In this document: piece after piece, positions 18,559 to 39,335 of the stretch | How the letters are laid out: every line of letters starts with the position of its first letter | Numbering within the stretch: position 1 is the first letter of the stretch | Assembly: GCF_015265455.1 (NCBI RefSeq) | Contig: NZ_CP054492.1 | Coordinates: 2,542,001-2,606,000, forward strand | Origin: Candidatus Sulfurimonas baltica | Lineage (GTDB): Bacteria > Campylobacterota > Campylobacteria > Campylobacterales > Sulfurimonadaceae | Length of the DNA stretch: 64,000 bases | Direction of reading: 5' to 3' | Notes under the pieces: generated by a model | The model's input: the letters and a program-made list of their open reading frames with translations, nothing else | The model's database searches: none | Told to the model about the DNA's origin: nothing | Translations under genes and position numbers: made by a program

Positions 18559-18647
18559 GGATCTTTGGCAGAGTTGGTCGAATGCACCGGTCTTGAAAAC
18601 CGGCGAGGGTTATACCTCCCAGAGTTCGAATCTCTGAGGGTCCACCA
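18559..18647 (+). tRNA. tRNA-Ser (TGA), island insertion target
   Basis: An 89-base class II tRNA. The acceptor GGATCTT pairs with AGGGTCC through G-U pairs, the anticodon is TGA in CTTGAAA, a long variable arm follows, and CCA is encoded. Its last 27 bases are repeated exactly at 39084-39110, so the island was inserted at its 3' end and restored the gene on the left. Confidence 0.97.
18621..18647 (+). repeat. attL: 27-nt direct repeat (tRNA-Ser 3' end)
   Basis: The sequence runs from AGAGTTCGAATC to GGTCCACCA and is identical to 39084-39110. It covers the T-arm, acceptor 3' strand and CCA of tRNA-Ser, the usual target of tRNA-directed integrases. Identity stops one base after CCA (T here, C on the right). 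Confidence 0.93.
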
Positions 18648-18692
18648 TTTTAAACCCCTATATTACATACTTTCAAGCCTTAAGAATTCATT

Positions 18693-25171: not shown

Positions 25172-26725
25172 TTAAAGTGACATCAAACTAAATATTCTTT
25201 CTAAGTTAACCTTACCATATCCATAATAATTATTTCTTTCATTCTCATAAGATACATTACCTATCTTATCGCTACTATTTTTTAATATATTCTCAATCTC
25301 ATTTCTCGTAAGGTTTGGATTTTTTTCAAGCATAAGTGCTATAACTCCACTTATAATTGGAGCAGATGCAGAAGTACCAATAAATGAGTTTGAATCATTG
25401 TATAAAAGATAATTATCATCTATTGAAGATATTCCATTGCTGCCCATACTGTCTAAAGTGGTTATCCCTATATCATAACCACCTGGGGCTACTATATCAA
25501 GGTTTTCACCATAGTTGCCATACCATGCTCTTAAATTATCTTTATCTGTGGAACCTACAGATATAACTTCTGGTATAGATGATTCATCATTTCCCATATC
25601 TCTATCATCATTTCCACTAGCAAAAACGATTATGGTTCCTTTTCCGTCTCTACCTGTATTTGCCAAATCTACAATTTTATCTTTTACACTTTGTGATACA
25701 TCATAAGTACCCCAACTACAATTTATAATATCTGCTCCAAATTCTTGAGCTTTGTTAAAAAGTTCAATCGTCTCACTATCACTCATACCTTCTTTATGTT
25801 TTAGAAATATAATTTTCGATTTACTTGCTATGCCTTGTATTCCTTTAGAGTTTACTCTTGCTCCTATTATCCCAGTTATAGCTGTACCATGATAATCACT
25901 TTGATTTGTATGCGATACGTTTGTAGACTTCGTAGATACGTTATAGCTGTTTATAATTGAACCTTCTAAGTCTTCATGTGTTGTATCTAGTCCATCATCT
26001 ATAATAGCTATCTTGACACCATTTCCTGTATAACTTTTTAATAAGTTCACTGAATTTATATGTGCGTTTTCATTAATATTATTTTGAGTATAAAAAGTAC
26101 TATTGTGTTCTAAGTACCATTGCTGATAATAATATGGTTCAGATTTAAGTGTAACATCTAGAGTATTTTGAAGTGTATCTATATAATGTTCTAAAGCTTC
26201 ATTTTGAAATATTAGATTTCTTCCAATAGAAGTTAGTGTAGTATTTAAATCATTTTGTGCTGTATTCATATCTGATATATCTAAACTAAATCCTATTAAA
26301 TTATCTCTTGTTATTGAGTTTATATCTATTCCATTTGTTGCATTGTTATCTGTATCTAATGACTGAACCAATTGTATAAAGTTTAATACTCTTATGTCAG
26401 TAATATTGTCATTTTCTAGTCCATAGAGTTTTGCGGGTGTAAGCTGTTCTATACTTTGAGCAGTTGAGATTATGAAACTACCTAAATTTATACCACCAAT
26501 TGTAAAAGTTACAGTTGAGTTAAGAGGACAAGTGAAGTTGCCATCTATTGTAGTTATGTCTATTGTTGAATCACAACTGTATGTTACACCGCTTATAGCC
26601 GAATCTAACAAGACTCCAGTAACAGTTTGAATACTAGATGATGGGTTACTAGATGATGAACTCCCGCCTCCGCTACAAGCTACGAAAAATAGAAAAATAA
26701 TGGGAAAAAGAATCTTTTTTAGCAT
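25172..26725 (-). CDS. Subtilisin-like serine protease, lipoprotein
   Basis: 517 residues. A lipoprotein signal ends in FFVAC (cysteine at about 17), followed by a Gly/Ser linker. Residues about 35-200 form a Campylobacterota-type N-terminal domain (GVTYSCDSTIDI, GNFTCP, TIGGINLGSF). The S8 catalytic domain follows, with D243 (AIIDDGLDTTHEDLEG), H279 (DYHGTAITGI), the oxyanion region VFASGNDD and S452 (GTSASAP). All three catalytic residues are present, so an active protease is expected at the cell surface or periplasm. It has no I9-type propeptide of its own; a propeptide-like protein is encoded by the gene 1 base upstream. Confidence 0.92.
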   Translation of the reverse strand: MLKKILFPIIFLFFVACSGGGSSSSSNPSSSIQTVTGVLLDSAISGVTYSCDSTIDITTIDGNFTCPLNSTVTFTIGGINLGSFIISTAQSIEQLTPAKLYGLENDNITDIRVLNFIQLVQSLDTDNNATNGIDINSITRDNLIGFSLDISDMNTAQNDLNTTLTSIGRNLIFQNEALEHYIDTLQNTLDVTLKSEPYYYQQWYLEHNSTFYTQNNINENAHINSVNLLKSYTGNGVKIAIIDDGLDTTHEDLEGSIINSYNVSTKSTNVSHTNQSDYHGTAITGIIGARVNSKGIQGIASKSKIIFLKHKEGMSDSETIELFNKAQEFGADIINCSWGTYDVSQSVKDKIVDLANTGRDGKGTIIVFASGNDDRDMGNDESSIPEVISVGSTDKDNLRAWYGNYGENLDIVAPGGYDIGITTLDSMGSNGISSIDDNYLLYNDSNSFIGTSASAPIISGVIALMLEKNPNLTRNEIENILKNSSDKIGNVSYENERNNYYGYGKVNLERIFSLMSL

Positions 26726-26726
26726 A

Positions 26727-27113
26727 CTATCTACGAATTCTTTTTTTGATAAAATTAGGGTGAGCGTATTCTACATATTCTTTTTCAGTAAGTCTATTTG
26801 ATATGTCTATTGTTAAGCTTTTATCTGTAGTTTTTAATAAGTATAGATTTTTATCTAAATTCTTTTCAATTGATATATTGAACTTTGATAATAAGTTATT
26901 TATCGATATATCATTTTTTAGTTTGACAATTAGCTTATCTGTTATACCTAATACTACACCTTTTTCATTTTGATAGTAGTCTATATTTGAACTGCTTCTT
27001 AATGAGATATTATAAGGGATTAAATATACTTTTTGATTATTATGATAGTAATAGCTGTCACTTGCACAAGCAAGTTGCAAAATTGATATTATGATTAATA
27101 AGGACTTTTTCAT
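26727..27113 (-). CDS. Secreted, separately encoded subtilase propeptide-like protein
   Basis: 128 residues. It starts with a hydrophobic signal (KKSLLIIISILQLACA; a possible lipobox at LACA). The body contains LIVKLKNDISINNLLSKF, then KNLDKNLYLLKTTDKS and LTEKEYVEYAHPNF, the pattern of the propeptide that precedes many S8 catalytic domains. It ends in a basic KKRIRR tail one base before the protease start codon. Reading: an intramolecular chaperone/inhibitor that acts in trans on the neighbouring protease. Propeptide function is inferred from the motif and gene order. Confidence 0.75.
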   Translation of the reverse strand: MKKSLLIIISILQLACASDSYYYHNNQKVYLIPYNISLRSSSNIDYYQNEKGVVLGITDKLIVKLKNDISINNLLSKFNISIEKNLDKNLYLLKTTDKSLTIDISNRLTEKEYVEYAHPNFIKKRIRR

Positions 27114-27128
27114 ATTATTAATCTCAAA

Positions 27129-27572
27129 TTAGAATGATAAAAAAATTATGGAAATAATCATTGGAAAAATAGCGAAATATAAAAGTTTTAACAAATCAGA
27201 TCGTAGTACAATTAATTTATTATTTTTATAAGCTATACCCGTATCACCTATTTTGTATCCTGCCATTGAACTATAAAAAGTGGTTCCTCTATGTTCAATT
27301 GAATTAATTAAATAAGTAAAAGTATAGACTCTTCCTCTTCCTACAGGAGTCATATTAGGCATACCATCTTTACCATATTTATAATCTATGATTTTTATTT
27401 CTATTTTTTGTGATAAAAATAAACTCACTATAAAAGAAAAAAGTAACAAACCTATTAAATAAAAAATAGAAAGGAATAAAACATCCTCTAGATTTTTATT
27501 AAAGTAAAAATGCCCTACCCCTATATATAAAAAATATAGAGGGAGGCTAATAAACAATATTCTTCTTATCAT
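27129..27572 (-). CDS. DUF3592-like small membrane protein
   Basis: 147 residues with hydrophobic segments at about residues 3-20, 30-55 and at the C-terminus (LLYFAIFPMIISIIFLSF). The extramembrane part GRVYTFTYLINSIEHRGTTF followed by YKIGD resembles DUF3592-type proteins. It is placed inside the four-gene lipoprotein/protease operon, 11 bases after the large lipoprotein and 15 bases before the propeptide gene, so co-expression is expected. Function is unknown. Confidence 0.65.
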   Translation of the reverse strand: MIRRILFISLPLYFLYIGVGHFYFNKNLEDVLFLSIFYLIGLLLFSFIVSLFLSQKIEIKIIDYKYGKDGMPNMTPVGRGRVYTFTYLINSIEHRGTTFYSSMAGYKIGDTGIAYKNNKLIVLRSDLLKLLYFAIFPMIISIIFLSF

Positions 27573-27583
27573 TTTGTTTATAA

Positions 27584-30500
27584 TTACTTACTTGGAAGAT
27601 TTAGAAATAAACTTTTCTCTTCTTCTAAGTTTCTGTCAATATTTCTTGAAACACCACTATACTCTGTACTTTGAATACAGTTTGATGTACATCTAACAAG
27701 CTGACCATTTATGATATCAAATACTTTCCAGTATTCTCCATCCTCATTTGGTACATTATAAGTAGTTGTTGTATCTCCATAATATATCTCAACTTTTGCA
27801 GATGAGTCTTTTAATGTGCTACTACCACTAAAATGATAAACATAATATGAATAAGTTGAAGAACTACTAACATCTGCAATGGTTGCTGTTTCAGGACCAA
27901 AACTTGATGTATCATCTGTATCTAAACTATCGCCATTATTATTCATATTAGAGTAATAAATATGATAATCCGTAGCATCTCCTGTTTTTTTAACTAAATG
28001 ACTATCTAAATCACTTGGATTTTCTCCCCAACTTAATTTTATTCTCATTTCACCTGAAGTTAATATAGGTGAAATTGATAAATCCTTAGTAATTGTTTCA
28101 CTACCTACAACATAAATATTTTCACTCGCAGTAATATAGCCATCTTTTGAAATGTTAAAAGTATAATATCCAGTAGATAAAGTATTAATTGAATAGTTAC
28201 CATTACTATCTGATACTAATGTATCTATTATTGTTCCACTCGTATTATCTCTATCTTCTCTTATGTCAATTGTTGCACCTGAAATATTTCCACCAGTTAC
28301 AGCATCTTTGATTTTACCATTATATGTTCCTATTGCATCAGCTAGTTCTGCAGACGAAATAATAATTTGTTCAAAAGAATTAACTCCAGAGACTATCTCA
28401 TATTCCTCAGTTATAAAATCATTATAACCATCTCTTTCTACAACTACTCTATAAGTTCCTGGCATTAAGTCACTAAATTCAAAGTTACCATCTTGACTTG
28501 TAGTAGTAGAATTTGACAAGGTAGTTAATCTTATCGTTGCACCAACAATAGGATTATTATTCTGATCTTTTACTGCAGATGAAAAAGTTCCATATTCTGG
28601 AATGTATACTGCAATCTCACCTTCATTTACTTCTGATTGTGTATTACCATAGTACGCAAGATGTCTAATACAGTATCTTTTTCCTTCTTCGATATTATGT
28701 ATACTTTTTACATCGTCAAAATTTATTGAAACATAATCATTTTCTATTTCAAATCTACTATCATACTCATTTATACTTGTTATGAAACTAGTAGTTGTAT
28801 CATCACAAGTTCTAGATGTGTCATTATAGTCTGATATATAAAATTTAAATCCCTTTTCTTCTTCATAAGAATCAACTACTGAAGAAGGCCATTGATAAGA
28901 ATTAAATCCTGTAATAAAAAACTTTTTAATACTAGTTCCTGTAATTGATACATTTACAGGTTCTTCAGGAGCTAAAAGTTGTGCTTTAAATTCAGAAAAA
29001 ATATTTTCTTCTATATAATTTTCATCATCATTATCATTGCTAAACTTTAAAGTTCCTCTCCATGTCTGTCCAGTAAAACTGCTTAAATCATTGATATTAA
29101 CTGAAATGGTAATTTCTTCAGTATCATTTGCACTTAATGTACCACTTTCTTTTGAAATATCAAAAAGAGTTGGTAAGTAGCCACTCGTGTCTAAACTCCA
29201 ATGTAAATCTTCATCTCCTGTATTTCTTACTTGAAATACATAATTTGCATAATAGCTTTCATTTACATATAAAATTTCATCTATTGGTACTGTAGATACT
29301 TCCAAATATGCTGGCTTTTGTTCATTTGTAGAAAGTTCTTTTTTCCAAATGTTATATACTACATCAAAAGAAGTATTACCTAAAAATCTGTTATTTGCAG
29401 ATGTTAAGACATTTTTTAAAGAATCTGGCATATAACTTCCTGCAATAAACCTTGGTCTTATCCCTATTTTAGCATCCACTTTTTGAGAAGCAGCAGCTTG
29501 AAAACCATTATTGTATTCTCCACCTGCCTTTGCTGTGTAGTATCCTCCAGCTTGTACAGTAGCTCCTAAACCAATAAAATTTTGAAATAATATTCGAGGT
29601 TGTGGTTCTATAAATGCACCCACACTTACTTCAATATTTGTTCCAGGCATTTCTCCTAACATATAATAATTTGTTGCAGAAGATTTAATAGATGTTGCTT
29701 CACCATTACTATAATTTACTCCAACTGTTCCTGTTGTATTCCATCCAACTCCAACAGTTAAAGCTGTATTTGAACTTCCCTTAACACCAATAAATACTGG
29801 TACATCTACTTGTGTATATAAGTAACCTATCCAAAATCCAAAACCCAGTGATTTTAAATCAGAACTATTTTCATTCGTAACTATACTAGGAAGATTTAAT
29901 AAACTGATTTTTCTTTCTAATTCAAATCCTGCCGTAGCAACAAGTTTTGCCTCACCAATATTCTCAATCTGATATGCAATTTTCGCACTCTTAACATTTA
30001 AGAATTTAGTATTTATGTCAATTATAGGTTTAATTTTAAAAGATATTTTACCTTGAATTGAAACAGCTTGTGTTTGATCATTACTTTCCCATATTTTCCA
30101 TGTACCTACCAAATCATCCACAGTTCTATTAATGCTATGGCTAGGGATAGGTGCAATAGTAAATATATCATCACCTTTAAATCGTGGAGGCAATAATTGC
30201 ATACCTTTCGCTCTTAAGCTTCTATTGATTGTAGCTTCATTAGTAAGATCATCATGTGTTAAATTTTTGTTAAAGCTTATTCCAGCTTGGCTAAACACAT
30301 CTAAAACAGAAGCTCCTTCTGTTTCAAATATATAATTATAATCATCTACTTTAACTTTTGATAAAACTTTTCTGGCAAATCTTTGAGATGTTCCCTTCGC
30401 AACAATTATATCATCTACTACAATAGCTTCTACAAAGTCTCTACTTGAACTATTTACATCTAAATCCAAACTTACTGTATAGTTATTATCATTAATCGCA

Positions 30501-31552
30501 ACAAAATAATTAGTAACATCTTTTACATTATCGTTGAGTAGTGACTCTTTATATATTATTGATGGACTCACTTGTCTATCAGATGAAATATTTTGTATAG
30601 AACAAGTTAACCCATCTGTTGAAATAAGATCACACCCATTCCAAGCATTTATCTTAACATTATCACTTAAGCTAATAGTAAAACTTACATTTGAGTCTTT
30701 TGTTATAAAATCTTTTAATTTACTAGTATTGTTGTCATTATTAAAAAATAAAGAACTTCCAATTGAAGTAATACTTGAATCAAAGCCTGGAATTAATTCT
30801 ACTTTGTAAAAATTATTATCTCTTTTTATGTTATTTGAATTAAATGTAAGTTTTTGAGAAAATAAATCATTTAGTTTATTTTCAATCACACTATTATTAC
30901 CATCATTATGAATACTATTTGCTAGCGAGTCCTCTCCCGTTAATGCAGAATAATCAAAATCAAGTTTATTCTTTGATTCACTATCTATTGGGACAAAGTT
31001 ATTTATATCTCTATATGAGATAGCATCTCTATTTATGTTTTCTTTTAGTAATTTAGCACTAACTATATTCATTGCTTGTTCTAAATCATCTTGATGAACT
31101 TCACCTATTAAGTGCTTAACATAAGAATATAATACTTCACTAAGTAATGTAACATTTACATTTCCACTTTTTAAATCACTAGCTTTTGCTAATCCTCTAA
31201 TGGTACCACTATTCGTAGTTGGTGTGTCATCTAGAATACCATCATCATTTGTATCAACGTCTTGACCACCTGAGATAGAAATCATTAACATTTCAGTGTC
31301 TGGAATCCCAGTTAACGCTACTGAATATGCACCTAAATTACCTGTTAGTGTTTCTTCTATTGAGTTCTCTAAGTCAGTTAACTTATAAATTTTAACAGTC
31401 GCACCTTTTAATGGTCCCATTATTGCATTATTTGAATTATCATTAATTGAGTATGAACTTGTTGTAGTGCTTGAATCACCACCTCCACCACCACTACATC
31501 CTATAACCATAAAGGCAAGTAATATCGCCAATATTAAACTAAGTTTTTTCAT
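27584..31552 (-). CDS. Large multidomain surface lipoprotein, 1322 residues
   Basis: The lipoprotein signal ends in MVIGC followed by a Gly/Ser spacer. A first carboxypeptidase-regulatory-like domain (GPLKGATVKIYKL) is at about 45-130. A long beta-rich central region follows. An Ig-like/abnormal-spindle type segment (about 795-880) contains NTGDEDLHWSLDTSG. Two more carboxypeptidase-regulatory-like repeats lie at about 1055-1210 (VGATIRLTTLSNSTTTSQDG and SGATIDIREDRDN). A C-terminal YfaP/DUF2135-like domain contains LSWGENPSDLDSHLV. Domains of this kind bind carbohydrate or protein outside the cell. It begins the operon that ends with the protease, which might process it. A G9 run lies 54 bases before the start. 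Confidence 0.85.
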   Translation of the reverse strand: MKKLSLILAILLAFMVIGCSGGGGGDSSTTTSSYSINDNSNNAIMGPLKGATVKIYKLTDLENSIEETLTGNLGAYSVALTGIPDTEMLMISISGGQDVDTNDDGILDDTPTTNSGTIRGLAKASDLKSGNVNVTLLSEVLYSYVKHLIGEVHQDDLEQAMNIVSAKLLKENINRDAISYRDINNFVPIDSESKNKLDFDYSALTGEDSLANSIHNDGNNSVIENKLNDLFSQKLTFNSNNIKRDNNFYKVELIPGFDSSITSIGSSLFFNNDNNTSKLKDFITKDSNVSFTISLSDNVKINAWNGCDLISTDGLTCSIQNISSDRQVSPSIIYKESLLNDNVKDVTNYFVAINDNNYTVSLDLDVNSSSRDFVEAIVVDDIIVAKGTSQRFARKVLSKVKVDDYNYIFETEGASVLDVFSQAGISFNKNLTHDDLTNEATINRSLRAKGMQLLPPRFKGDDIFTIAPIPSHSINRTVDDLVGTWKIWESNDQTQAVSIQGKISFKIKPIIDINTKFLNVKSAKIAYQIENIGEAKLVATAGFELERKISLLNLPSIVTNENSSDLKSLGFGFWIGYLYTQVDVPVFIGVKGSSNTALTVGVGWNTTGTVGVNYSNGEATSIKSSATNYYMLGEMPGTNIEVSVGAFIEPQPRILFQNFIGLGATVQAGGYYTAKAGGEYNNGFQAAASQKVDAKIGIRPRFIAGSYMPDSLKNVLTSANNRFLGNTSFDVVYNIWKKELSTNEQKPAYLEVSTVPIDEILYVNESYYANYVFQVRNTGDEDLHWSLDTSGYLPTLFDISKESGTLSANDTEEITISVNINDLSSFTGQTWRGTLKFSNDNDDENYIEENIFSEFKAQLLAPEEPVNVSITGTSIKKFFITGFNSYQWPSSVVDSYEEEKGFKFYISDYNDTSRTCDDTTTSFITSINEYDSRFEIENDYVSINFDDVKSIHNIEEGKRYCIRHLAYYGNTQSEVNEGEIAVYIPEYGTFSSAVKDQNNNPIVGATIRLTTLSNSTTTSQDGNFEFSDLMPGTYRVVVERDGYNDFITEEYEIVSGVNSFEQIIISSAELADAIGTYNGKIKDAVTGGNISGATIDIREDRDNTSGTIIDTLVSDSNGNYSINTLSTGYYTFNISKDGYITASENIYVVGSETITKDLSISPILTSGEMRIKLSWGENPSDLDSHLVKKTGDATDYHIYYSNMNNNGDSLDTDDTSSFGPETATIADVSSSSTYSYYVYHFSGSSTLKDSSAKVEIYYGDTTTTYNVPNEDGEYWKVFDIINGQLVRCTSNCIQSTEYSGVSRNIDRNLEEEKSLFLNLPSK

Positions 31553-31605
31553 TTTTTAAATCCTTGAATATTTTAAACATGACTTCCAAAAGTAAATATC
31601 TCATA

Positions 31606-31614
31606 GGGGGGGGG
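31606..31614. repeat. G9 homopolymer upstream of the large lipoprotein gene
   Basis: Nine G residues on the plus strand, C9 in the lipoprotein's reading direction, 54 bases before its start codon. Tracts of 8 or more G/C are slippage hot spots and switch genes in Campylobacter. Here a length change could alter promoter spacing. Inferred. Confidence 0.6.
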
Positions 31615-31680
31615 CAATGTTTATGATGAAACTGTACAGTATTTTTATTTATAATATGCTTAATAATGTTAAAATTAGAA

Positions 31681-31881
31681 TTAATTTTTTTTGTTATTAT
31701 TTGTAATATTTAAAACCCCTTCATTAGCACTTTGACTATGACTTAAATGGTCAACTGTCTGATAGTAGGATGTAACTGTTCCACTATGTTGATGACCTAA
31801 AGATGCAGACAACACTTGTGCTGGTACGCCTGCTCTTCCAAGAACAGAAACTAAAGTATGCCTGAAATAATGCATTGTCAA
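31681..31881 (-). pseudogene. Truncated tyrosine recombinase, C-terminal fragment
   Basis: Only the last 66 or so codons remain. They hold HYFRHT (catalytic HxxR), SLGHQHSGTVTSYYQ (LGH, then the active-site tyrosine). The first catalytic Arg and the whole N-terminus are missing. The wording differs from the intact island integrase at 37795-38910, so this is the remnant of a second integrase. The fragment ends where homology to another gene begins on the opposite strand (31891), marking a recombination junction. Confidence 0.8.
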
Positions 31882-31890
31882 TTCTGATTT

Positions 31891-32172
31891 ACAGTTTGTG
31901 CGCCTAGTACTCCATGGGCTTTACTTTGTGGTGTTGTTACAGGTACAGCAAGCTGGGTAGGGGTTGATACTGCCTTAACAAAAATCGATCAAGCATTTAA
32001 TGAATATAATTTTCAATTGAGTGTTAGAAAAATGATAGATGCAGAAAATCATACCTTAAAAACTTTGATAAAGGCTTCCTATCACAAGTGGGTACTTAAT
32101 ATTTTTGAAGAACTAAATGAAAGTAGAAGTAATTTAAAATCACCGCACGAACAATTACAAAAAAATATATAA
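31891..32172 (+). pseudogene. C-terminal fragment, paralogue of the 41848-43683 membrane protein
   Basis: The frame from 31894 reads VCAPSTPWALLCGVVTG, then SWVGVD, FQLSVRKMIDAEN, KASYHKWVLN and SPHEQLQKN, ending in TAA. This closely matches the last 90 or so residues of the chromosomal gene 9.7 kb to the right (VCAPSGPWALLCGVVTG and SPHEQLQKNNS). It has no start codon and no ribosome site. The remainder of the gene is absent. Confidence 0.85.
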
Positions 32173-37794: not shown

Positions 37795-38910
37795 TTACTT
37801 AGTACCTAATAATTTTGCTGATATGTCATTTGTATTTCTTGTAGCAGTCTCTCTTTGTAATGATAAATACTTTTTAAGTGTTGAACTATCATTATGTCCA
37901 AGTAGTGCTGTTAAGTCTCCAAGACTCGCACCCATCGCACTTAATGCACTCACAGATAAATTTCTCATCCAGTGAAAAGTGAATTCTTCTATTCCTGATA
38001 TAAATCTTATTTTAGGGTAATGGTCTTTAGTATGCTTAATCATAAAAACATCTCCTCTCGTGTCCACAAACTCAAGTAGTGCATCTCTGACATCTCTTGC
38101 TAAAGCAAATGTCATATCGGTATTTACTTTTGAGTTACTTCCTCGTACTAAGTACTCATTAGTCTCAAAGTTTATATCTTCCCATTGTAAAGTTAAAACC
38201 TCTTGTAATCTACGCCCATAAAATCCGAACAAAAATAATGCTCTATGATGTGGATTCTCATTACATTGTATGCTCTTCGTATCACTAATAACTACGAGAT
38301 CATCTGAGCCAAATAATTGATGTATAGTCTCATGTATTTTCTTATATTTGTTTACAGCATCTGTAACAATCTTTTTTTCTTCAAGTTGCTTGCGAACAGG
38401 TATATGACTTTTTTTAATAGGACTCTTAACGATTAAGTCATCTTCAACCGCTAAATCAAATAGTGGTTTTAAAATTTCATATGCTTTTTTTCTTGTTGCT
38501 GGTGCGAAATCCTTTAGCGATACATTTAAAGAGGTAAACTGAGCAGCTTTAACATCTCGTAGTTTTAGTTTCGCAAGTTTTAATAAATGCTTTTCAAAAT
38601 AGTAATCGTAATTACGGATAAGAATATCATTCCACCCTTTTACAATTTTCACTTTTTCCCAATAATCTCTTACTGTTGCATTAACATCTGCCGAGAGAGT
38701 ATTATCATGAATAATTTCATCTTTGATTCTATCAAGTTCTCTTCTTGCTGTTTTTAATCGGTCTTTAGGAGAATGAGATTTACTACTACTCCATAATCGA
38801 CTATATCGTTTTCCCTCTACAGAAAAATCAAACCAAAACCTAACTCCATCATTATGGATTTTAATACCAGCATCATTAGTTTTATTATAAGATTTTTTAT
38901 CTATTGCCAT
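37795..38910 (-). CDS. Tyrosine recombinase, island integrase
   Basis: 371 residues. The N-terminal part includes an arm-binding/SAM-like region (about 1-170). The catalytic domain has the first Arg in FGFYGRRLQEVLTLQWEDI, HWMRN (HxxR), LLGHNDSSTLKKYLSL (LGH and active-site Tyr). All catalytic residues are present, so it should be active. It lies 173 bases inside the right 27-nt repeat and reads away from it. Four GGTCTC repeats stand between it and the repeat. It is the enzyme expected to integrate the island into tRNA-Ser. Confidence 0.93.
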   Translation of the reverse strand: MAIDKKSYNKTNDAGIKIHNDGVRFWFDFSVEGKRYSRLWSSSKSHSPKDRLKTARRELDRIKDEIIHDNTLSADVNATVRDYWEKVKIVKGWNDILIRNYDYYFEKHLLKLAKLKLRDVKAAQFTSLNVSLKDFAPATRKKAYEILKPLFDLAVEDDLIVKSPIKKSHIPVRKQLEEKKIVTDAVNKYKKIHETIHQLFGSDDLVVISDTKSIQCNENPHHRALFLFGFYGRRLQEVLTLQWEDINFETNEYLVRGSNSKVNTDMTFALARDVRDALLEFVDTRGDVFMIKHTKDHYPKIRFISGIEEFTFHWMRNLSVSALSAMGASLGDLTALLGHNDSSTLKKYLSLQRETATRNTNDISAKLLGTK

Positions 38911-39083: not shown

Positions 39084-39110
39084 AGAGTTCGAATCTCTGA
39101 GGGTCCACCA
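39084..39110 (+). repeat. attR: 27-nt direct repeat
   Basis: Identical to the last 27 bases of tRNA-Ser (18621-18647). It is not preceded by the rest of a tRNA, so it is the displaced 3' end of the target gene and marks the island's right border. Confidence 0.93.
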
Positions 39111-39335
39111 CTTTAATAATCACAAACAATCAAAACACTCCTTAACCCTTACAACACTAAACCTCAAAGCTATTTTAGTCTTTTGAACTATTTACAAGTA
39201 GACACAAAACACACCGAGCTCTATACTTGAAATACACTTTAATATTAGTTTGCCGCCAATAAGAACAAACACCATGCTAAACCAAAATTAGAAATATGAT
39301 AAAATATACCAAGATTGACGTAAAAGGCTAACTAT

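What the first reader, a model, noticed from the sequence alone, without database searches (positions are those of the whole stretch)
26727..31614. Split subtilase: propeptide, DUF3592-like protein and giant lipoprotein in one operon
The S8 lipoprotein lacks its own propeptide, and a secreted protein with the propeptide pattern is encoded 1 base upstream. Preceding it are a membrane protein and a 1322-residue adhesin-like lipoprotein. This suggests a cell-surface processing system in which the protease, controlled in trans by its propeptide, matures or sheds the large lipoprotein.
Basis: partly seen in the sequence, partly recalled or inferred. Interest (0 to 1): 0.68.

Follow-up and report, generated by a model that had tools for sequence, protein, structure and literature searches.

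The report
Lipid-anchored protease with separately encoded propeptide
In sulfur-oxidising Campylobacterota, a kexin-like protease and the folding/inhibitory "pro" segment that is normally part of the same chain are made by two neighbouring genes, split exactly where the enzyme would cut itself, apparently so that the protease itself can carry a lipid anchor; such a split was previously described for essentially one subtilase.

Summary
The four genes are real (window 25172-31552, minus strand): giant lipoprotein, small membrane protein, 128-aa secreted prodomain, 517-aa S8 lipoprotein. The split is genuine and general. A prodomain gene directly upstream of an S8 lipoprotein gene recurs in about 54 non-redundant Campylobacterota pairs, including a second pair in this genome. 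The prodomains' only invariant residue is the last one, Arg128. Fused relatives carry that Arg at the same position, immediately before the catalytic chain, so the gene break sits at the presumed self-cleavage site. Proteases with a separate prodomain are lipoproteins (73 of 74 by a simple signal test); the fused relatives sampled are not (0 of 23). A structure model of the read-through fusion places the prodomain as in fervidolysin and pro-Tk-subtilisin; the catalytic domain best matches Kex2 and furin. Closest precedent: Aeromonas ASP with its external chaperone ORF2; a downstream, ASP/ORF2-like arrangement also occurs in Campylobacterota. The giant lipoprotein is linked in only four loci, so its being the substrate is unproven. 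The operon is cargo of a 20.5-kb integrative element in tRNA-Ser. Verdict: new variant of a known kind; observation confirmed, interpretation partly supported.

The parts
25172..26725 (-). S8 (subtilase, kexin-like) lipoprotein, 517 aa, without its own propeptide
   Evidence: Pfam PF00082 E=2.4e-48; closest solved folds Kex2 Z 44, furin Z 42; D243, H279, N372, S452 intact
26675..26725 (-). lipoprotein signal peptide of the protease, ending in Cys17 (MLKKILFPIIFLFFVAC)
   Evidence: sequence; lipobox-type signal in 56 of 57 split proteases, 0 of 23 fused ones
26141..26638 (-). extra N-terminal domain of the protease (about residues 30-195), absent from most split proteases
   Evidence: also in L038, L047, L079, L183 and the giant proteases L006, L037; low-confidence in the model
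25172..26128 (-). catalytic domain (residues 200-517)
26727..27113 (-). stand-alone subtilase prodomain, 128 aa, secreted (signal peptide ending ACA/SD)
   Evidence: PF22148 over cut-off; family of 31 aligned; canonical docking in the model
26730..26732 (-). codon of C-terminal Arg128, the only invariant column of the prodomain family
   Evidence: 51 of 54 upstream-coupled pairs end in Arg
27129..27572 (-). small membrane protein, 147 aa, function unknown
   Evidence: ORF; weak homologue (E 9e-5) at the same place in L047 only; no Pfam family
27584..31552 (-). giant lipoprotein, 1322 aa
   Evidence: CarboxypepD_reg x2; orthologue or shared C-terminal module directly upstream of the pair in L047, L038, L077
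27584..28600 (-). C-terminal module of the giant (about residues 985-1322) shared by all four linked giants, with tail R[NS][IL]...F.[ND]LP[AS]K
18621..18653 (+). attL: 3' end of tRNA-Ser(UGA) (18559-18647)
   Evidence: 33-nt direct repeat, 97% identical to attR
39084..39116 (+). attR of the integrative element that carries the operon
37795..38910 (-). tyrosine integrase of the element
   Evidence: PF00589 + Arm-DNA-bind_2

Best explanation
This is a two-gene zymogen. The upstream gene makes a secreted subtilase prodomain that ends in Arg; the next, translationally close gene makes a lipid-anchored, kexin-like S8 protease with no prodomain of its own. Both are exported separately (inferred). 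The prodomain then folds onto the protease in trans as chaperone and temporary inhibitor, its C-terminal Arg sitting where the P1 residue of a just-cleaved propeptide would sit (inferred from homology and the model). Release or destruction of the prodomain activates the enzyme (inferred). The gene break lies at the ancestral self-cleavage site, so a stop codon and a new signal peptide replace autoproteolysis. The likely advantage is that the mature protease keeps an N-terminal lipid anchor, which a fused prodomain would take away when cleaved off (inferred). The giant lipoprotein upstream is an accessory partner or candidate substrate in only a few loci.
For: Recurrent pair: HMM hits in 33 of 200 genomes of the family and 28 of 397 in a phylum-wide sample; nearly all stand-alone genes lie directly upstream of an S8 gene, most often with a 4-base overlap. 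Second pair in the same genome. R128 is the only invariant column of 31 prodomains; 51 of 56 pairs (51 of 54 after removing two downstream-type ones) end in Arg against 7% background, 16 of 19 also where genes do not overlap. Fused Campylobacterota relatives have Arg at the same position followed by the catalytic chain (L086 KKRVR|Q, L194 KKVR|A, L196 KRRR|S, L200 RENR|L). Minimal split proteases have only about 43-82 residues between lipobox Cys and catalytic Asp. Model of the read-through fusion: prodomain core pLDDT about 84-95, catalytic core mostly about 90; single rigid alignments span both parts in fervidolysin 1r6v (model 22-646, 367 residues, 2.8 A) and pro-Tk-subtilisin 2zwo (58-646, 337 residues, 2.8 A). 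Lipobox: 56 of 57 split and 17 of 17 downstream-type proteases, 0 of 23 fused. Precedent: ASP/ORF2, where the chaperone's C-terminal Lys sits in the active site (PMC5638518).
Against: No biochemistry. The model is a covalent fusion with fused homologues in a 24-row alignment, which favours docking; no inter-domain error map or coordinates were available. The split/lipoprotein association rests on only 1-3 independent transitions. Arg at the junction is clear in 4 of 9 fused Campylobacterota proteins, not all. Secretion and lipidation are read from sequence.
Confidence: 0.8

Rival explanations
1. The small protein is a dedicated inhibitor only (like stand-alone I9-type inhibitors or SUB1-ProM); the protease folds without it and the inhibitor protects the periplasm until the protease reaches its site.
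For: Stand-alone propeptide mimics that act as inhibitors are known (Pleurotus, yeast and Arabidopsis inhibitors, TgMIC5, SUB1-ProM; PMC6993865). Product-like C-terminal Arg fits tight product inhibition.
Against: In those eukaryotic cases the inhibitor is a gene of its own not derived from the enzyme precursor; here the protease has no other prodomain and fused relatives show the small protein is the missing prodomain itself.
Confidence: 0.15
2. A surface-processing cassette: the protease matures or sheds the giant lipoprotein of the same operon, as dentilisin PrtP is needed for cleavage of PrcA in Treponema denticola.
For: Giant directly upstream in four loci from at least three genera, in 41%-identical full-length form in L047; conserved Arg 19-20 residues from the C terminus of all four giants; PrtP-dependent PrcA cleavage (PMC8167434).
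Against: Most pairs have no such giant; tail-bearing proteins occur in genomes without this protease; no cleavage data.
Confidence: 0.25
3. Artefact: one gene broken by a sequencing error, or two genes read as one chain by programmed frameshifting.
For: The gap is one base, so the two ORFs are in different frames.
Against: About 54 non-redundant pairs with varied junctions (overlaps of 1, 4 or 16 bases and gaps of 0-24), each protease with its own lipoprotein signal directly after the junction.
Confidence: 0.02

Closest known systems
Aeromonas sobria serine protease (ASP) and its external chaperone ORF2 (PDB 3wqb)
   Same: Kexin-like S8 protease without a propeptide (catalytic-domain match Z 37.5); separate small adjacent gene; chaperone's basic C-terminal residue (Lys) lies at the catalytic centre and it inhibits the enzyme (PMC5638518).
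   Different: ORF2 is encoded downstream; here upstream and coupled. ASP is described as secreted, here lipoprotein; no P-domain here; C-terminal Arg, not Lys; only weak sequence similarity (PF18492 in 3 of 31 family members, not in the window protein).
Treponema denticola dentilisin (prcB-prcA-prtP)
   Same: Operon with a subtilase lipoprotein, a small exported protein needed for the protease, and a larger lipoprotein whose cleavage depends on the protease (PMC8167434).
   Different: PrtP keeps its own propeptide, whose removal takes the acylated N terminus away; PrcB is itself a lipoprotein; PrtP model matched far below cut-off (64 of 300 bits).
Stand-alone propeptide-like inhibitors (SUB1-ProM, TgMIC5, Pleurotus inhibitor)
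   Same: Separate prodomain-like protein acting on a subtilase (PMC6993865).
   Different: Target proteases such as SUB1 keep their own prodomain; there the role is inhibition, not replacement of the missing prodomain.
Fervidolysin and pro-Tk-subtilisin (PDB 1r6v, 2zwo)
   Same: Prodomain fold and position on the catalytic domain; Pfam PF22148 named after fervidolysin.
   Different: Single-chain precursors.

Membership tests
Peptidase family S8 (subtilases) | S8 catalytic domain with Asp/His/Asn/Ser | tested here: met
   PF00082 E=2.4e-48; triad and oxyanion Asn conserved
Peptidase family S8 (subtilases) | N-terminal propeptide in the same chain (usual, not universal) | tested here: not met
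   no prodomain match in the protease; no room for one in the minimal relatives
Kexin/furin-type convertases | catalytic domain closest to kexin/furin | tested here: met
   top VIA-align rows Kex2 Z 44, furin Z 42
Kexin/furin-type convertases | C-terminal P-domain | tested here: not met
   protein ends at the catalytic domain
Subtilase prodomain (Fervidolysin_NPro-like) | Pfam PF22148 over gathering score | tested here: met
   22.5 vs 21 bits; 15 of 31 family members match at E<=0.01
Subtilase prodomain (Fervidolysin_NPro-like) | docks on the catalytic domain as in solved pro-enzymes | tested here: met
   model only: alignments to 1r6v and 2zwo span both parts
ASP/ORF2 external-chaperone system | adjacent separate gene supplies the prodomain function | tested here: inconclusive
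   adjacency met; function not testable here
ASP/ORF2 external-chaperone system | chaperone gene downstream of the protease | tested here: not met
   upstream here; a separate downstream clade exists in Campylobacterota
ASP/ORF2 external-chaperone system | ORF_2_N domain (PF18492) | tested here: inconclusive
   no hit for the window protein; weak hits in 3 of 31 members; one 171-aa ORF in G027 hit by both profiles
Dentilisin | PrtP equivalog NF033595 over cut-off | tested here: not met
   64.4 vs 300 bits
   no DUF3592 match at E<=1

The most novel reading that the evidence does not exclude
A mobile-element-borne surface proprotein convertase: a lipid-anchored, Arg-specific protease, kept silent by a separately encoded pre-cleaved prodomain, processes the giant lipoprotein at its conserved Arg1303, 19 residues before the C-terminal F.NLP.K tail, so that the tail acts as a removable sorting or anchoring signal.
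Probability: 0.1. Interest if true: 0.8.

Novelty: new variant of a known kind. Interest (0 to 1): 0.6.

Why it matters
A 2022 survey of subtilases names ASP as the exception to the rule that an N-terminal propeptide acts as intramolecular chaperone (PMC9549277). Here a whole group of bacterial subtilases breaks the rule, with fused relatives that show where the gene was cut. It offers natural two-chain zymogens for studying whether prodomains must be covalently linked, how product-like prodomains inhibit, and whether lipid anchoring of a protease forces the prodomain into a separate gene. It also means many annotated Campylobacterota S8 lipoproteins cannot be expected to work when expressed alone.

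Tried and rejected
Sequencing error or frameshift product: rejected, see rivals. MAFFT alignments A4 and A5 for the fold were misaligned by fragment rows and not used. Structure of the giant lipoprotein: pLDDT 39, pTM 0.25, not interpretable. PDB sequence search with the prodomain profile: only chance-level hits, ORF2 not found. PF18492 in Gammaproteobacteria: nothing rang anywhere, uninformative. Plasmid search with the prodomain: no match. A link between the giant's F.NLP.K tail and this protease across genomes was not upheld. Literature searches found no description of upstream split prodomains in Campylobacterota, but only open-licence papers were searched.

Full report
Setting. The window lies in a 2.74-Mb single-contig genome. 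Same-genus hits of the genome search correspond to named Sulfurimonas contigs, so I read the host as a Sulfurimonas species (inference).

Observation. Four genes run on the minus strand: giant lipoprotein 27584-31552, small membrane protein 27129-27572, small secreted protein 26727-27113, S8 lipoprotein 25172-26725. Spacings are 11, 15 and 1 bases. The protease has a single Pfam domain, Peptidase_S8; the small protein matches the fervidolysin prodomain family slightly above its cut-off; the membrane protein matches no family.

The split is general. A profile from this prodomain and the second one in the same genome (35% identical) finds stand-alone copies in 33 of 200 genomes of the same family. 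Nearly all lie directly upstream of an S8 gene. A profile of 31 members finds more in other families of the order, 28 of 397 genomes, and named contigs include Sulfurimonas, Sulfurovum, Sulfurospirillum, Nitratifractor, Arcobacter and one Thiotrichaceae MAG; the last looks like an isolated transfer, with no other hit in 63 genomes of its order. After reduction at 90% identity there are 56 pairs, two of which (L202, L206) belong to a different, downstream arrangement. Half of the pairs overlap by 4 bases. L076 was counted as split in the trees although its contig starts too close upstream to show a prodomain.

The cut is at the self-cleavage site. In the 31-member alignment the only invariant column is the last residue, Arg128 of the window protein. 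51 of 56 pairs end in Arg; Arg ends 7% of other ORFs in these loci; 16 of 19 non-overlapping pairs also end in Arg, so the overlap with the next start codon does not explain it. Four naturally fused Campylobacterota proteases have Arg at the corresponding position and go straight on into the catalytic chain. Established knowledge of subtilases says the propeptide's C-terminal residue occupies the S1 site after cleavage; the stop codon here therefore sits where the peptide bond would be cut. This last step is inference.

The protease has no other prodomain. In the short split proteases only about 43-82 residues separate the lipobox Cys from the catalytic Asp. The window protease has an extra domain of about 165 residues there, also seen in a few relatives and in the giant split proteases L006 and L037, but absent from most split proteases.

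Structure. The one-base gap and the stop codon were read as Gly to give a single chain and modelled with 24 sequences. The prodomain core and the catalytic domain are confidently predicted, the extra domain is not. The catalytic domain is closest to Kex2 (Z 44) and furin (Z 42); fervidolysin and pro-Tk-subtilisin align over prodomain and catalytic domain together, which is the canonical inhibited arrangement. The fusion and the fused homologues favour such a result, so this is support, not proof.

Lipid anchor. Split proteases carry a lipoprotein-type signal in 56 of 57 cases by a simple rule (the exception, L076, has FSSC after a likely wrong start); the 23 fused ones in the tree carry none. 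All 17 proteases of the downstream arrangement carry one too. The prodomains themselves mostly have ordinary signal peptides. In dentilisin the acylated N-terminal piece of PrtP is removed on maturation, which illustrates why a fused prodomain and an N-terminal anchor conflict. The tree has two well supported upstream-split clades, fused clades between them, and one downstream clade. It allows either repeated fission or fission with re-fusion, and offers only 1-3 independent contrasts, so the association is striking but not statistically established.

Known precedent. ASP lacks a propeptide and needs the downstream-encoded ORF2, whose C-terminal Lys sits at the catalytic centre and which inhibits ASP. 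A subtilase survey lists ASP as the exception. Some Campylobacterota have a similar downstream arrangement, with S8 lipoproteins of 545-819 aa followed within -4 to +11 bases by a small prodomain-like protein. One such ORF in G027 is hit by both the profile of this family and by PF18492, so the two kinds of separate prodomain may be distant relatives. The window's prodomain itself does not match PF18492.

The giant lipoprotein. Its three best matches among 228 family genomes are itself and the proteins directly upstream of the pair in L047 (41% identical over the full length) and L038 (C-terminal 334 residues); a fourth lies upstream of the pair in Sulfurovum L077. The C-terminal module is what they share; the middle differs. 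All four end in R[NS][IL] plus about 17 residues ending F.[ND]LP[AS]K. Similar tails occur in genomes without this protease. In G193 a tail-bearing lipoprotein stands directly before an S8 lipoprotein of the downstream type. So the association recurs, but a protease-substrate relation is unproven.

Mobile context. A 33-nt repeat at the end of tRNA-Ser (18621-18653) and at 39084-39116, with an integrase at 37795-38910, bounds a 20.5-kb element of 30.7% G+C against 36.4% outside. It also carries AbiEii-type genes, a Rad52-like gene and a TraD-like ATPase with a replication-relaxation gene. The operon is cargo of this element; the second pair of the genome lies outside it.

Verdict. Observation confirmed; interpretation partly supported; a new variant of the external-chaperone arrangement, with the mechanism inferred.

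Noticed in passing
window 18621-39116: 20.5-kb integrative element in tRNA-Ser(UGA) with 33-nt attL/attR (97% identical), integrase, AbiEii/DUF6088 pair, second AbiEii-like gene, Rad52-like annealing protein, TraD-like ATPase and replication-relaxation gene.
   Followed up: partly
window 31680-31950 (minus strand): Remnant of the C-terminal part of a tyrosine recombinase (HTLVSVLGRAGVPAQVLSASLGHQHSGTVTSYYQ) just upstream of the giant lipoprotein gene.
   Followed up: no
L006 3161-8838; L037 4116-8923: Second split pair in the same genome and its relative in G141: prodomain followed by a 1755-aa (1473-aa) S8 lipoprotein; the 1755-aa one has seven Big_5 Ig-like domains and Lcl_C domains in the same chain.
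   Followed up: partly
window 27587-27646; L038, L047, L077, L226, L214, L219: Conserved C-terminal tail F.[ND]LP.K, usually with an Arg about 19 residues from the end, in large secreted proteins of Sulfurimonas, also in genomes without the protease: possible unknown sorting signal.
   Followed up: partly
L202, L203, L205, L206, L207, L261-L268: Second arrangement in Campylobacterota: S8 lipoprotein of 545-819 aa followed downstream by a small prodomain-like protein, ASP/ORF2-like.
   Followed up: partly
L039 1-6017: A split pair directly after genes that look like a type I secretion system (ABC transporter, HlyD-like, TolC-like).
   Followed up: no
L085 4760-8960: Split pair in a MAG labelled Thiotrichaceae, downstream of an astacin-like protein and two small lipoproteins; no other copy in 63 genomes of its order.
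   Followed up: partly
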